From: a bacterium
GTDB taxonomy: Bacteria > JAGOBX01
Assembly: GCA_029551925.1 (NCBI GenBank)
Contig: JAKPEO010000110.1
Location: forward strand, 1 to 64,000
DNA length: 64,000 bases
Reading direction: 5' to 3'
Below the pieces are notes generated by a model. That model was given only the letters and a program-made list of their open reading frames with translations, was not told where the DNA came from and ran no database searches. Every line of letters starts with the position of its first letter. The stretch's first letter is position 1. Made by a program: the position numbers and the translations under genes. Of the stretch, positions 33,527 through 41,878 are shown piece by piece.

Positions 33527-34954
<1,428 letters not shown>

Positions 34955-35001: not shown

Positions 35002-35892
35002 TTAAATACCTTTTAAAGATTCCTTCATCATATTTATAGTCGCATTTATTAATTCCATAAGACCATTATCATATTTTTCCAAATCAACACTGCCTTTTTC
35101 TTCGCCGCTTATATCAATTCTATTTTCCATAGATTTTTTTAATTTAAAAATATTTTGGTTCTGTTTATAAAAACCATACGATATTTTTTTATTGCCTTTA
35201 AAACCAACTTCATCCCCGCGTAAATCTCCATTTAAAATAATATCAAATGATTTTAATACAGGCGCGCCTTTTTTACCTTTATCAATGTAAAACGAAACTT
35301 TTATTGCTCCATTTGCTTGTGCTGCGTTTGTAAGTTCCGCTAAATTACTTATAAGTTTTATAGCTTTTAAAGGATTAGTGGGAAATAAGCCAAGCCCTTC
35401 AGCTGACATTTTTATTCCTTTAGTAGTGACTCCATCGCTAAAAACACTACCTTTATAACCTTTTGTTGTTTTTTCAAAATCAAGGTCTAAAGATTTATAA
35501 TATTCAAGTTCAGTCAAATTTTCTTTTGGAACCACTTCAAAACCAGCATCTTCGAATGCTTTTTCAACTAACTCATATACTCTATTTATTACAGAATTAT
35601 AATAATCATTTCCGAGATATATGGTTGAAGTTTTTGTTGTAAGCGTATTGGTCGCTCTCTGTGCAAATACACTGCTTGACACTTCTTTGCTTTGCATAAA
35701 TTCACCAGCAAATTCTACAATTAACAACTTACTGACATTCCATTTTTTCAATTTTTCAAAATTATTGTCTGTTAATTTTTTTGTCATTTTAGATATATCA
35801 TCAAAATCAGCAGCATTATACTCGTAATCAGCGGCAAAAACATTCAAAGAAATAAAAAAAACTAACAAAAATAATACTATTTTCTTTTTCAT
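35002..35892 (-). CDS. Secreted protein of unknown function inserted in the atp operon
   Basis: 296 residues with a clear signal peptide (MKKKIVLFLLVFFISLNVFA, cleavage before ADYEY). The mature part has the repeated pattern VSKLLIVEFAGEFMQS, then VYELVEKAFEDAGFEVVPKE and later VLKSFDIILNGDLRGDEVGF, an alpha/beta layout resembling periplasmic proteins that contain a CsgG-like or TolB-N-like nucleotide-independent fold. I do not recognise a named family. It is in the same orientation as, and tightly between, atpG (59 bp) and atpD (65 bp), so it should be co-transcribed with the ATP synthase. No membrane anchor or lipobox is visible. Confidence 0.8.
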   Translation of the reverse strand: MKKKIVLFLLVFFISLNVFAADYEYNAADFDDISKMTKKLTDNNFEKLKKWNVSKLLIVEFAGEFMQSKEVSSSVFAQRATNTLTTKTSTIYLGNDYYNSVINRVYELVEKAFEDAGFEVVPKENLTELEYYKSLDLDFEKTTKGYKGSVFSDGVTTKGIKMSAEGLGLFPTNPLKAIKLISNLAELTNAAQANGAIKVSFYIDKGKKGAPVLKSFDIILNGDLRGDEVGFKGNKKISYGFYKQNQNIFKLKKSMENRIDISGEEKGSVDLEKYDNGLMELINATINMMKESLKGI

Positions 35893-35951: not shown

Positions 35952-36851
35952 TTATTGCTCTAACGCATTTGCGCCGCCGACAATTTCAGATATTTCTTTT
36001 GTAATCGCTGCTTGACGCATTCTGTTATATTGTATTGTCAAAATTCTCAAACGCTCAACGCAATTGTTAGTGGCATTATCCATTGCTGTCATTCTTGACG
36101 CTAATTCGCCGACATACGATTCTAATAACGCCGAATAAATTTCAGATGAAATATACATTGGCAATAATTGTTCTAAAATAGCTACTTCTGACGGCTCGTA
36201 TAAATAATCTATTATTTCGCCTTCCATTTTATTTTTAAATTCAGCATCTTGCTGAATTTTTTCATCGATATTATCAACAACAGGCGCTAATTTTTTAAAA
36301 GTAATATTCTGTTTTAATATTGATTTATAATGATTATACAATACAAGTATACTACCTACATTTCCTTGCTTATAATCATCTATTAATTCATTTGCAATCT
36401 TATCTGCTACTTTAATATCAAATGTTCGATAGACGCCGACAAATGATTTTTCTACTTGATAATTCCGTTTGGTAAGATATGTCGCACCTTTTCTACCAAT
36501 CACCCAAAGTTTATAATTCTTATCTTGCTGCTTTAATTCGTTAATATATCTAACGAGTTCTTTTAAAAGTAAAGAATTAAAAGCACCGCACAATCCTCTA
36601 TCAGATGTCACAACAACTATCCCAATAGTATTAGATGAATTTTTATCCAATAAAAAATGCTCTTTAATATCACAACGCAGAGCTAATGATAAAGTAATAT
36701 CTTCAATCTTTTTCTTAAAATTTCGATATTTTAAGGTCTGCTGCTCAGCTCTTTTAAACTTCGCAGAAGCAACCATTTTCATAGCACGCGTAATCTGCTG
36801 GGTATTTTTTATTGCCTTTATGCGAACCCTCAAATCTTTTAAACCGGGCAT
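35952..36851 (-). CDS. atpG: F1Fo ATP synthase gamma subunit
   Basis: 299 residues. Central rotor shaft of F1. The N-terminus PGLKDLRVRIKAIKNTQQIT and MKMVASAKFKRAEQ, the mid SDRGLCGAFNSLLLKE, and the C-terminal SRMTAMDNATNN(C)...YNRMRQAAITKEISEIVGGA are textbook gamma motifs at both ends of the coiled coil. Good site AAGGTGG. It follows atpA by 19 bases. Confidence 0.97.
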   Translation of the reverse strand: MPGLKDLRVRIKAIKNTQQITRAMKMVASAKFKRAEQQTLKYRNFKKKIEDITLSLALRCDIKEHFLLDKNSSNTIGIVVVTSDRGLCGAFNSLLLKELVRYINELKQQDKNYKLWVIGRKGATYLTKRNYQVEKSFVGVYRTFDIKVADKIANELIDDYKQGNVGSILVLYNHYKSILKQNITFKKLAPVVDNIDEKIQQDAEFKNKMEGEIIDYLYEPSEVAILEQLLPMYISSEIYSALLESYVGELASRMTAMDNATNNCVERLRILTIQYNRMRQAAITKEISEIVGGANALEQ

Positions 36852-36870: not shown

Positions 36871-38388
36871 TTATAAATTTCCTATTCTCTGCGTCTTTTT
36901 AAATTCTGTAATTACATCATTCATTTTCTTCATTAAAGCATCAGATAATTCTTTTTTCTCTTTTATTTCATTTACAATAACGGAATATTTATCTTTGAAG
37001 TATGAAAGTAAATGGTCAATAAATTTTTGTATTTCTCGCACTTCTATATCATCTAAAAATCCATTAATTGCTGTATAAATAGTAATAACTTCTATTTCCA
37101 TAGGCAGCGGATTAAATTGCCCTTGTTTCAATACTTCTGTCAATCGCTCGCCGCGGTGTAGCTGCGCTTGCGTTGCTTTATCCAAATCTGCACCGAATTT
37201 TGCGAACGCCGCTAATTCGCGATACTGCGCTAAACTTAATTTTAATTTACCAGCAACTTGTTTCATTGCTTTTACTTGCGCATTACCGCCAACTCGCGAA
37301 ACTGACAAACCTACATTTATAGCTGGTCTTTGCCCTGAATAAAACAAACTGCTTTCCAAAAATATCTGTCCGTCTGTTATAGAAATAACATTTGTCGGTA
37401 TATATGCAGACACATCACCTGCTTGCGTTTCTATTACTGGCAACGCTGTTAATGACCCGCCGCCTTTTTCATTGCTGTATTTGCACGCTCTTTCTAATAA
37501 TCTTGAATGCAAATAAAATACATCGCCAGGATACGCTTCGCGGCCCGGTGGTCTTCTTAATAATAATGACATCTGTCTATATGCCGCAGCATGCTTTGAT
37601 AAATCATCGTATATTATCAACACATGCTGTCCGCGTTCAGCAAAATATTCGCCTATCGCACATCCAGCATACGGCGCTATATATTGTAAAGGCGCTGGCT
37701 CTGATGCAGTAGAACATACTACTATCGAATAAGCCATCGCTCCATATTCTTCTAAAATGTTGACAACATTAGCGACAGTAGATTTTTTCTGCCCTATCGC
37801 AACATAAATACAAATAACATCCTGTCCTTTTTGATTTATTATTGTATCTATTGCTATTGCTGTTTTACCTGTTTGTCTGTCGCCGATAATTAATTCACGC
37901 TGTCCGCGACCAATTGGTATCATACCATCAATCGCTTTAATACCTGTGTATAACGGTTCTTTAACCGGTTGACGCTCAATTACACCTGGCGCTATTTTTT
38001 CTATATATGAATATGCTTCAGCTTTTATCTCGCCTTTACCGTCTATCGGCTGACCGAGCGCATCTACTACTCTACCAATCATAGCTTTGCCAGTTGGCAC
38101 TTCCGCAATTTTACCAGTTAAGCGCACTCTATCACCTTCGCGGATTTGCTTAAAATCGCCTAATATCGCGACGCCTATATTTCCTTCTTCCAAATTCAAT
38201 ACTATGCCTTTTATATTATTAGGAAATTCTAATAATTCACCAGACATAGCATTTGATAAGCCGCTCACGCGCGCTATCCCGTCATTTATTTGCAGGACAA
38301 TACCTTCTTCCGCTGCGTCAACGCTCGTCCGATAATTTTTTAATTTACTTTCAATTATTGAACTTATTTCTTCCGGCTTTATCTGCAT
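36871..38388 (-). CDS. atpA: F1Fo ATP synthase alpha subunit
   Basis: 505 residues. Regulatory nucleotide-binding subunit of F1. Walker [20 protein letters not shown] (with Gln in place of a second catalytic residue, as in all alpha subunits), Walker [14 protein letters not shown], and the alpha signature [14 protein letters not shown] with the arginine finger. Strong site GGAGG. It lies 27 bases after atpH. Confidence 0.98.
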
Positions 38389-39506: not shown

Positions 39507-39785
39507 TTAAACAACAAATATTAATAACAATGCAATAACCAACGAATAAATCCCTGTCGATTCAGATACAGCTTGACCTACAAGCATTGTTCTTGTAAGC
39601 AACCCTGCTTCTTTTGGCGTGCGCGCAATACCTTCGCACGCTTTACCAGCAGCATACCCTTCGCCAACACCTGGTCCAATTGCTCCAAATCCCATACAGA
39701 TACCAGCGCCTAAATACGCCGCAGCTTTCATTATTGTCTTTGAAAGAGACACATCGCCAAATAAATGTTTAACTAATTCTTCCAT
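39507..39785 (-). CDS. atpE: F1Fo ATP synthase c subunit, single hairpin, Na+-type two-carboxylate site
   Basis: 92 residues, two membrane helices (about 17-43 and 64-90) joined by the polar loop ARTP. The ion site residues are all visible: Glu42 in PGVGEGYAAGK on helix 1, and Glu75, Ser76 and Tyr80 in GQAVSESTGIYSLVIAL on helix 2. Glu-Ser-Thr-x-x-Tyr is the Na+ coordination signature known from Ilyobacter-type c rings. In those rings the helix-1 residue is Gln; here it is Glu, as in the two-carboxylate ring described for Fusobacterium nucleatum. Na+ coupling is therefore a well-founded inference, not proven. The site is GGAGGG. It lies between the duplicated c gene and atpF. Confidence 0.95.
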   Translation of the reverse strand: MEELVKHLFGDVSLSKTIMKAAAYLGAGICMGFGAIGPGVGEGYAAGKACEGIARTPKEAGLLTRTMLVGQAVSESTGIYSLVIALLLIFVV

Positions 39786-39806: not shown

Positions 39807-40334
39807 TTATTTTGTCATATAAATTAAACACAAACTTACTACAAAAGCATACACACTTGTTGATTGCGCTGTCGCTTGACCAATTAACATTGTTTTCATT
39901 ATACTACCGCTCTCATCTGGCGTACGCGCTACTGCTTTACATGCTTCTTTCGAAACATAGCCGTCACCCAATCCCGGACCAAATGCGCCAAATCCCATAC
40001 ATATCCCAGCAGAAATAATAGCAATCATATGCGGAAACATTGAAATCATATTCATTCCTGTTACTGTTTGATCTAAAAAAATCAATAGTATCGCAGTTAC
40101 AAGCGCAAATATAGCTGGTGATTCTGTCACCGACTGACCTATCAACATTGTTTTTAATAAATCATTTGCGACCTTCGGCTGACGAGCCATACCTTCTAAT
40201 GCGCCGCCAGCAGTTAATCCGATGCCTGTGCCTGCACCTATCGCGCCAAATCCCATACATAAGCCAGAAGCAAAGGCTCCGCTTATTTGTATCATATATT
40301 CTAACACTTCTGGATCTTTTAAAAATTCAAGCAT
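39807..40334 (-). CDS. atpE: Duplicated (four-helix) c subunit with one altered ion site
   Basis: 175 residues from the ATG at 40334 (AGGAG eight bases upstream; an in-frame TTG two codons earlier is too close to that site). Two c-type hairpins in tandem. Hairpin 1: AGTGIGLTAGGALEGMARQP then GQSVTESPAIFALV, with the essential Glu (codon 40122-40124) and Ser present, but Ile at the helix-1 site position (40221-40223) and Phe instead of Tyr. Hairpin 2: PGLGDGYVSKEACKAVARTP then GQATAQSTSVYAF, with Asp at the helix-1 position (39963-39965), Gln in place of the essential Glu (codon CAA, 39864-39866), and Ser and Tyr kept. A fused, V-ATPase-like rotor subunit is clear. How hairpin 2 binds an ion is inference. 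It precedes the single atpE, as in Acetobacterium woodii. Confidence 0.93.
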   Translation of the reverse strand: MLEFLKDPEVLEYMIQISGAFASGLCMGFGAIGAGTGIGLTAGGALEGMARQPKVANDLLKTMLIGQSVTESPAIFALVTAILLIFLDQTVTGMNMISMFPHMIAIISAGICMGFGAFGPGLGDGYVSKEACKAVARTPDESGSIMKTMLIGQATAQSTSVYAFVVSLCLIYMTK

Positions 40335-40374: not shown

Positions 40375-41442
40375 TTATGCCTTGTGCTCTGTATGTTCTT
40401 CTTCGTCGCCCGCAATCCAAACAGCTATATATACCAATGCAAGCATTGAAAAAACAAACGCTTGTATTGTTCCGACAAATATTCCGAAAAATCCGAATAA
40501 ACCAATAGGTAAAAATACATTCGATATTAAATACGAAATAACTATCATTATAATAGCGCCACCTTTTATATTGCCAAATAAACGAAAAGAATGAGATATT
40601 ACTTTTCCAATTTCACCAATAATATTCAGCGGCAACATCACAATAAAAGGATTACTTAATTCTTTAAAAACACCGATTATTTTATGTTTTTTAATAGCCG
40701 AAAACATCACTATTACAAATACCATCAAGCCCAGCCCCAATGTCGTATTCAAATCCTGCGTTGGTTCTTCTAATGTCATCCATTCCGGTAAAAATGTATG
40801 GTATTCTACTGCATAATTTTTGTTATTTCTTTTATTATATACATCAGTTATATATTTTGCAAATATCAATTTTTTATTTTTTTGATTATATTCTTGCCAT
40901 TCCTTTTTTAATTCTTTATGAGCATTTATATCTAAATGCTCACCGCTTTTTATATCTATTATTACTTCTTTATCTACTATATGCCAGATAGAAGGTATTA
41001 TCCCTATCCAGTTTGACAGACAAATAAAAACAAATAATGAAAAAATTAACGCTAAATATTTTCTACTTTGCTTTTTGCCTAATGTTGCGCGCGTTAATTC
41101 ATCAAACATTTCTACTATTATTTCAGCAAATGCTTGCAATCTACCGGGTATTGCTTGCAGATTTTTTGAAACTTTATAAGCAAAAAAAATCAATAGCAAT
41201 ATAATTACCCAACTAATAACAAATGATACTTGATTTAATTCAAAAAATTCAAATGGCACTTCGTGTTCAGGCATTGTTGCATAATGCGATAAATCCGCTC
41301 CTAAAAATACCTCACGCAAATTCCATCTTGATACTTCGCCAATCTTCATCATCGGTCGCGCGTCTTTTGAGGAAATATGCGCTATTATCAAATGAATAAT
41401 TAAAACTGCAACTAAAATTCCTATTATTTTACTTTTAGTCAC
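40375..41442 (-). CDS. atpB: F1Fo ATP synthase a subunit
   Basis: 355 residues, ion-channel half of Fo. The essential Arg287 is in SHSFRLFGN; EPTQDLNTTLGLGL and the last helix IQAFVFSMLALVYIAVWI are typical. The start is GTG (41442) after GGAGAAG and overlaps the atpI-like gene by 8 bases. A long polar segment (about residues 153-228, between the second and third membrane segments) seems roughly twice as long as the matching loop in Escherichia coli and is rich in Lys, Glu and Tyr. It pairs with two kinds of c subunit. Confidence 0.96.
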   Translation of the reverse strand: MTKSKIIGILVAVLIIHLIIAHISSKDARPMMKIGEVSRWNLREVFLGADLSHYATMPEHEVPFEFFELNQVSFVISWVIILLLIFFAYKVSKNLQAIPGRLQAFAEIIVEMFDELTRATLGKKQSRKYLALIFSLFVFICLSNWIGIIPSIWHIVDKEVIIDIKSGEHLDINAHKELKKEWQEYNQKNKKLIFAKYITDVYNKRNNKNYAVEYHTFLPEWMTLEEPTQDLNTTLGLGLMVFVIVMFSAIKKHKIIGVFKELSNPFIVMLPLNIIGEIGKVISHSFRLFGNIKGGAIIMIVISYLISNVFLPIGLFGFFGIFVGTIQAFVFSMLALVYIAVWIAGDEEEHTEHKA

Positions 41443-41878
41443 TTTTCTTCTCCGTTTTTTTATAAAATGATTCTATAAAGTATAAAATATATATTGTAAT
41501 CTGGACTGCAAACAGCCCTGCTATCGCCGCAAATATATTTATCGTTTTTTTGTTCATCGCGGCTATTGATAAAATTATCAATATCAAAATATATCTAACA
41601 AAAAAATTTTTTACTAATAACCCGCCGCTCACGGCATTTGTAGAATTTGAATCTTTCGTTATTTCTCCAAATTTCTCTATTTTATTCGATAATATCCGAA
41701 AATTCAGCAACGAAGCAACAGCGCCTATTAAAAATCCTTTTAAAATTTGTTTAAGGAACTGCAGATTATTATAAAAAATTATTATTAATATCACTGACAC
41801 TGCAATAATAAAAATTATCGCTGAAAAAAAAATAACATCTCTAAACTGTTTATACGATAAATCCGTTAGATTTAACAT
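41435..41878 (-). CDS. AtpI-like small membrane protein
   Basis: 147 residues with four hydrophobic helices (about 14-35, 43-62, 88-108 and 112-135), in the place where atpI/DUF-type ATP synthase assembly proteins normally lie. The first helix pair contains polar GFLIGAVASLLNFRIL, similar to the AtpI/'ATP synthase I chain' group. AtpI-like proteins help c-ring assembly, in some cases for Na+ enzymes. Start overlaps the UPF0434 stop (TAATG), and its end overlaps atpB by 8 bases. Confidence 0.8.
   Translation of the reverse strand: MLNLTDLSYKQFRDVIFFSAIIFIIAVSVILIIIFYNNLQFLKQILKGFLIGAVASLLNFRILSNKIEKFGEITKDSNSTNAVSGGLLVKNFFVRYILILIILSIAAMNKKTINIFAAIAGLFAVQITIYILYFIESFYKKTEKKSD

What the first reader, a model, noticed from the sequence alone, without database searches (positions are those of the whole stretch)
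39807..40334. Apparent acid/amide swap in the second hairpin of the duplicated c subunit
In hairpin 2 the essential helix-2 Glu is Gln (CAA at 39864-39866), while the helix-1 site position, Gln in Ilyobacter-type rings, is Asp (39963-39965). Ser and Tyr of the Na+ site are kept. So the carboxylate looks moved from helix 2 to helix 1 rather than simply lost, while hairpin 1 keeps a normal Glu but has hydrophobic Ile and Phe in place of the Na+ ligands. The duplicated subunit might carry one H+-like and one inverted Na+-like site, or one silent site. I know of no described example of this swap.
Basis: partly seen in the sequence, partly recalled or inferred. Interest (0 to 1): 0.75.

Follow-up and report, generated by a model that had tools for sequence, protein, structure and literature searches.

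The report
Silent hairpin in hybrid ATP-synthase rotor
The odd Asp/Gln pair is real, but it lies in the inactive half of a doubled rotor protein of an ATP synthase, a known design (as in Acetobacterium woodii) that lowers the ions needed per ATP, so it is most likely a fading remnant of a lost ion site and not a relocated one.

Summary
In detail: the duplicated c subunit (39807-40334, minus strand) has Ile38/Glu71 in hairpin 1 and Asp124/Gln157, with Ser158, Thr159 and Tyr162, in hairpin 2. A single-hairpin c with Glu42/Glu75 (the Fusobacterium-type two-carboxylate Na+ motif) follows it. The 'moved carboxylate' reading is not supported. The ancestral pair was most likely Glu/Glu, so Asp looks like a kept second acid and only the helix-2 Glu was lost. 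In solved rings Ser66, Thr67 and Tyr70 of a hairpin complete the NEXT hairpin's site, so the Ser/Tyr kept in hairpin 2 do not report on its own site. Among 42 multi-hairpin chains, 78 hairpins lack the helix-2 acid; position 32 there is Ser, Ala, Met, Gly, Cys, Thr, Ile, Gln, Leu, or once Asp (this window). Such hairpins keep Tyr70 in 29 of 38 cases where the next site is active or the chain ends, and in 0 of 39 where the next is also dead. A. woodii c1 (PDB 4bem), closest by fold and sequence, has Gln32/Gln65 in hairpin 2 and fits the same rule. Verdict: a hybrid-rotor c1 with a silent hairpin 2; Asp is drift or at most structural. The Asp/Gln pair was found in no other genome tested.

The parts
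39807..40334 (-). atpE1: duplicated (two-hairpin) c subunit, c1, 175 aa
   Evidence: (PF00137 twice); AlphaFold2 pLDDT 86.6; best PDB match by fold and by sequence is A. woodii c1, 4bem_J
40221..40223 (-). hairpin 1 position 32 = Ile38
   Evidence: alignment
40107..40130 (-). hairpin 1 helix 2: Val69-Thr-Glu71-Ser72-Pro73-Ala-Ile-Phe76; Glu71 is the only helix-2 carboxylate of c1; Ser72/Pro73/Phe76 should face hairpin 2's site
   Evidence: geometry from PMC2359735
39963..39965 (-). hairpin 2 position 32 = Asp124
   Evidence: alignment
39864..39866 (-). hairpin 2 position 65 = Gln157 (essential Glu lost)
   Evidence: Gln is the commonest replacement in silent hairpins, 53 of 78
39849..39863 (-). 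Ser158, Thr159 and Tyr162: donor residues kept for the site of the next subunit in the ring
   Evidence: PMC2359735
39507..39785 (-). atpE2: single-hairpin c subunit, c2, with Glu42/Glu75, Ser76, Thr77, Tyr80 (two-carboxylate Na+ motif)
   Evidence: motif as in Fusobacterium nucleatum (PMC3692424)
40375..41442 (-). atpB, a subunit; conserved Arg287 at 40582-40584
41435..41878 (-). atpI
   Evidence: PF03899
38974..39456 (-). atpF, b subunit
   Evidence: PF00430
38416..38973 (-). atpH, delta subunit
   Evidence: open frame; operon position and sequence, no family search run
36871..38388 (-). atpA, alpha subunit
   Evidence: open frame; sequence reading
35952..36851 (-). atpG, gamma subunit
   Evidence: open frame; sequence reading
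33527..34948 (-). atpD, beta subunit
   Evidence: open frame; sequence reading

Best explanation
The gene encodes the c1 subunit of an F/V-hybrid rotor ring, the arrangement of Acetobacterium woodii: a doubled c subunit with one working ion site (Glu71, hairpin 1) and one silent hairpin (Gln157), mixed in the ring with single-hairpin two-carboxylate c2 subunits. Hairpin 2 passes the a subunit without carrying an ion, so fewer ions are needed per turn and per ATP. Its Ser158, Thr159 and Tyr162 are kept because they complete the site of the next subunit. Asp124 is the remnant of the second carboxylate (Glu32) of a Glu/Glu ancestor: once Glu65 became Gln, position 32 was freed. Asp124 sits on the inner helix, is most likely permanently protonated or hydrogen-bonded to Gln157, and does not take part in transport. 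Shown: residues, operon, fold, homology, drift of position 32, pattern of retained donor residues. Inferred: joint assembly of c1 and c2, protonation state, absence of transport.
For: Site anatomy: Glu65 and Gln32 of one subunit plus Val63, Ser66 and Tyr70 of the neighbour; in the fused E. hirae NtpK, hairpin 2's Glu139/Gln110 plus hairpin 1's Leu61/Thr64/Tyr68 (PMC2359735). Same architecture in A. woodii and C. aceticum: hairpin 1 'Q....ET', hairpin 2 'Q....QT', c2 alongside (PMC7911925; 4bem_J). Fold and sequence: best PDB hit 4bem_J, TM 0.85, E 3.4e-9 by Foldseek and 1.2e-42 by profile. Drift: 78 acid-less hairpins in 42 c1 chains have S25 A12 M8 G7 C7 T7 I6 Q4 L1 D1 at position 32. Donor rule: acid-less hairpins keep Tyr70 in 29 of 38 cases where the next hairpin is active or the chain ends, 0 of 39 where the next is dead (Fisher p 1e-13); a hairpin's own state does not predict Tyr70 (p 0.13). 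In the window, hairpin 1's donors (Pro73, Phe76) are degenerate, as in all 65 internal hairpins before a dead hairpin (none has the full Ser-Thr-Tyr set). Position 32 drifts inside one family: hairpin 2 of L062/L063/L064 reads G/S, V/E, D/E. Of 42 c1 genes, 35 have a single-hairpin c just downstream. The genome has an rnfC well above cut-off, compatible with Na+ bioenergetics.
Against: Asp is the only acid among 78, so chance drift to exactly an acid is not common, although E to D is the smallest possible step from the ancestral Glu. No close relative with this gene exists in the collections (the only same-family genome shows a V/A-type locus instead), so purifying selection on Asp124 could not be tested. 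The 42 chains are phylogenetically related, so the Fisher p-values overstate independence. Tyr70 is kept in only 3 of 7 internal hairpins whose next hairpin is active, so the donor rule is a strong tendency and not a law.
Confidence: 0.8

Rival explanations
1. Structural ion: Asp124 and Gln157 of hairpin 2, with Ser72 O-gamma and the Val69 carbonyl of hairpin 1, hold a permanently bound Na+ or H+ that stabilises the ring but is never released to the a subunit.
For: The main oxygen ligands of the known Na+ site (two side chains at 32/65, Ser66 O-gamma, Val63 carbonyl) are all present in mirror form in the window. Ser72 is kept.
Against: The residues that finish the site on hairpin 1 are lost: Thr67 (water) is Pro73 and Tyr70 is Phe76. 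Position 32 is not conserved in other silent hairpins.
Confidence: 0.12
2. Inverted working site: the carboxylate really moved to helix 1, and Asp124 exchanges an ion with the a-subunit channels.
For: Asp at 32 with Gln at 65 is exactly what a swap would look like; Ser, Thr and Tyr are present in hairpin 2.
Against: In solved and modelled rings the outer-helix Glu65 swings out to the a-subunit Arg, while Glu32 stays in and stays protonated (PMC3692424); Asp is shorter still. The Ser/Thr/Tyr belong to the neighbour's site. The pair is in no relative. The ancestor most likely had acids at both places, so nothing moved.
Confidence: 0.03
3. Sequencing or assembly error at 39866 (GAA read as CAA), giving an ordinary Asp/Glu two-carboxylate site.
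For: One base from Glu; D/E occurs in hairpin 2 of L064.
Against: Gln is the commonest replacement at this place in many lineages, including A. woodii and C. aceticum. The neighbouring hairpin 1 donors are degenerate as expected next to a dead site. Reads could not be inspected.
Confidence: 0.04

Closest known systems
Acetobacterium woodii F/V-hybrid rotor, c1 subunit (PDB 4bem chain J; AtpE1)
   Same: Two fused hairpins, Glu in hairpin 1, Glu to Gln in hairpin 2, Thr/Tyr kept in hairpin 2 and Phe in hairpin 1; followed by single-hairpin c subunits
   Different: A. woodii has Gln at position 32 in both hairpins; the window has Ile38 and Asp124. The window's c2 has Glu/Glu, A. woodii c2 has Gln/Glu
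Clostridium aceticum AtpE1/AtpE2
   Same: c1 with silent hairpin 2 ('Q....QT') and one c2 gene in the same order (PMC7911925)
   Different: Gln at 32 in hairpin 2; Gln/Glu type instead of two-carboxylate c2
Fusobacterium nucleatum two-carboxylate c11 ring (PDB 3zk1)
   Same: Glu32/Glu65 motif equals the window's c2 (Glu42/Glu75) and most active relatives
   Different: Homomeric ring of single hairpins; no silent hairpin
Enterococcus hirae NtpK (PDB 2bl2), V-type c
   Same: Two fused hairpins with one ion site; donor residues on the hairpin without the acid (structural hit 2)
   Different: The working Glu is in hairpin 2 and hairpin 1 is silent; V-type ATPase

Membership tests
F/V-hybrid rotor (A. 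woodii-type c1 + c2) | One atp operon encodes a duplicated c and a single-hairpin c | tested here: met
   atpE1 39807-40334 and atpE2 39507-39785, adjacent
F/V-hybrid rotor (A. woodii-type c1 + c2) | c1 has one carboxylate site in four helices; hairpin 2 has lost the acid | tested here: met
   Glu71 in hairpin 1, Gln157 in hairpin 2
F/V-hybrid rotor (A. woodii-type c1 + c2) | c1 and c2 assemble into one ring | not testable with these tools
   needs a purified ring
F/V-hybrid rotor (A. woodii-type c1 + c2) | Na+ ligands (Gln at 32, Ser/Thr at 66) in the working sites | tested here: inconclusive
   c2 has Glu42/Glu75/Ser76 (two-carboxylate Na+ type); hairpin 1 of c1 has Ile38 at position 32
Two-carboxylate Na+ c subunit (F. 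nucleatum type) | Acid at both 32 and 65, with Ser66, Thr67, Tyr70 (tested on c2) | tested here: met
   met by c2
Two-carboxylate Na+ c subunit (F. nucleatum type) | Acid at both 32 and 65 (tested on hairpin 2 of c1) | tested here: not met
   position 65 is Gln157

The most novel reading that the evidence does not exclude
Hairpin 2 of c1 carries an inner-helix Asp site that holds an ion (structural or exchangeable) in mirror image of the known Na+ site, so that the ring is not truly silent there.
Probability: 0.13. Interest if true: 0.75.

Novelty: new variant of a known kind. Interest (0 to 1): 0.4.

Why it matters
The ion-to-ATP ratio of an ATP synthase is set by how many rotor hairpins carry a working carboxylate. 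Here and in 41 other chains from many lineages, multi-hairpin c subunits, most with silenced hairpins, stand mostly beside two-carboxylate c2 subunits. This extends the hybrid-rotor design known from acetogens and shows which residues a dead hairpin tends to keep for its neighbour. Chains of three or four hairpins with one or no acid make low ion/ATP ratios directly testable.

Tried and rejected
(1) My first DNA pattern for acid-32/Gln-65 was two N short and failed to find the window itself, so its zero count in 383 genomes is void. The corrected pattern finds only the window's genome in 386 genomes and no other fetched relative. Six hits in viral contigs do not look like c-subunit sequence when translated. 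(2) The pattern covers Gln codons at 65 and no indels, so acid-32 with Ser or Gly at 65 is covered only by the residue table. (3) The idea that Asp124 could complete hairpin 1's Glu71 site was dropped: positions 32 and 65 of one site come from the same hairpin. (4) The same-family genome G001 has no F-type c1 match; its only PF00137 hit is a V/A-type locus, so conservation in near kin cannot be tested. (5) The tree leaves the window as a lone long branch in an unresolved radiation. (7) Matthies et al. 2014 on the A. woodii ring is not held. (8) One genome pair (G003/G292, four hairpins of a different type) was left out of the statistics.

Full report
WHAT IS THERE. The window's minus strand carries an F-type ATP synthase operon: atpI, atpB, a two-hairpin c subunit (c1, 39807-40334), a one-hairpin c subunit (c2, 39507-39785), atpF, atpH, atpA, atpG, atpD. 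In Ilyobacter numbering, hairpin 1 is Ile32/Glu65 with Ser66, Pro67, Phe70. Hairpin 2 is Asp32/Gln65 with Ser66, Thr67, Tyr70. c2 is Glu32/Glu65 with Ser66, Thr67, Tyr70. These are the only PF00137 matches in the genome as assembled (86% complete).

SITE GEOMETRY. In the Ilyobacter ring the Na+ is held by Glu65 and Gln32 of one subunit and by Val63 O and Ser66 of the neighbour, whose Tyr70 stabilises the Glu. In the fused E. hirae NtpK, Glu139 and Gln110 of hairpin 2 are completed by Leu61, Thr64 and Tyr68 of hairpin 1 (PMC2359735). So positions 32 and 65 of a hairpin form its own site, while 63, 66, 67 and 70 are donors to the next hairpin of the chain. In the window, hairpin 2's own site is Asp124 and Gln157 with donors Val69, Ser72, Pro73 and Phe76 from hairpin 1. 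Hairpin 2's Ser158, Thr159 and Tyr162 should serve the subunit that follows it in the ring.

RELATIVES. Searches of genome contigs and of whole genomes across many lineages gave 42 distinct multi-hairpin c1 chains with two to four hairpins, the window's included, after leaving out one differing pair. At least 35 have a single-hairpin c within 1 kb downstream; several others are cut by contig ends or masked. Of hairpins in these chains, 36 are active (acid at 65; position 32 is E in 28, I 4, V 2, D 1, L 1) and 78 are not (position 65 is Q 53, S 16, G 6, H 2, I 1). Position 32 in the inactive ones is S 25, A 12, M 8, G 7, C 7, T 7, I 6, Q 4, L 1, D 1; the single D is the window. A corrected DNA pattern for acid-32/Gln-65 found only the window's genome in 386 genomes. 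Position 32 also drifts within one family: hairpin 2 of L062, L063 and L064 is G/S, V/E and D/E.

DONOR TEST. If a hairpin's 66/67/70 residues serve the next hairpin, a dead hairpin should keep them when the next site works and lose them when it does not. Among inactive hairpins, Tyr70 is kept in 29 of 38 whose next hairpin is active or which end the chain (next partner expected: c2 or the next chain), and in 0 of 39 whose next hairpin is also inactive (Fisher p 1e-13). A hairpin's own activity does not predict Tyr70 (p 0.13). Over all internal hairpins before an inactive one, 1 of 65 has Tyr70 and none has the full Ser-Thr-Tyr set. A. woodii c1 fits too: hairpin 1 Gln/Glu with Thr-Ser-Phe, hairpin 2 Gln/Gln with Thr-Thr-Tyr. 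Limits: the chains are related, so p-values are too small, and only 3 of 7 internal hairpins before an active one keep Tyr70.

STRUCTURE. AlphaFold2 with nine sequences gives a confident four-helix model (pLDDT 86.6, pTM 0.78). Its best solved match is A. woodii c1, 4bem_J (TM 0.85), then E. hirae NtpK. The profile search also ranks 4bem_J first (E 1.2e-42). No coordinates could be measured.

HOW IT LIKELY WORKS. c1 and c2 most likely share a ring, as in A. woodii and as proposed for C. aceticum (PMC7911925). c2 has the two-carboxylate site of F. nucleatum, in which Glu32 stays protonated and only Glu65 swings out to the a-subunit Arg (PMC3692424); the Arg is present here as AtpB Arg287. Hairpin 1 of c1 has Glu71 and should receive Ser/Thr/Tyr donors from its predecessor, but Ile38 removes one Na+ ligand, so it may be H+-type or a weak Na+ site; this is open. 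Hairpin 2 carries no ion to the a subunit, which lowers ions per ATP. An rnfC gene in the genome is compatible with Na+ bioenergetics but does not prove it.

WHY NOT A SWAP. The relatives and c2 indicate a Glu/Glu ancestor, so an acid at position 32 was already there and only Glu65 was lost. Asp is one step from Glu. The donors that would finish a Na+ site for hairpin 2 are degenerate (Pro73, Phe76). The inner-helix residue is not the one that reaches the a subunit. A structural, non-exchanged ion at Asp124 cannot be excluded.

NOVELTY. The design is known (hybrid rotor with a silent hairpin 2). The Asp/Gln pair, the Ile in hairpin 1 and the combination with a two-carboxylate c2 make it a variant. 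I found no description of chains of three or four hairpins with no acid at all, but the main survey of hybrid rotors (Brandt and Muller 2015, cited in PMC7911925) is not held, so novelty of that point is untested.

Noticed in passing
L077, L080, L082, L083, L085, L095-L102: 13 of 42 c1 chains (2-4 hairpins) have no acid at position 65 in any hairpin read (some chains are cut by contig ends or masked). In the phylum of G112, 10 of 12 genomes are of this kind and 2 keep one site. A rotor subunit with no ion site would further lower ions per ATP.
   Followed up: partly
L119 (1492-1986, minus): c1 of G473 has the same hairpin 1 residues as the window (Ile/Glu, Ser-Pro-Phe) but an active Glu/Glu hairpin 2, an exception to the donor rule and a possible picture of the state before silencing.
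   Followed up: no
L055 9465-9779 and 10621-10887 (minus): G027 has two separate one-hairpin c genes, one on each side of atpB: one Glu/Glu and one Ala/Ser without any acid, i.e. a silent c as its own gene.
   Followed up: no
L057 6365-7315 (plus): G003 has a four-hairpin c of another type (G/E, S/Q, L/E, S/D) beside an atpB, apart from a single c at another place in the genome.
   Followed up: no
window 35002-35892 (minus): A 296-aa open frame with a signal-peptide-like start lies inside the atp operon between atpG and atpD, an unusual insertion.
   Followed up: no
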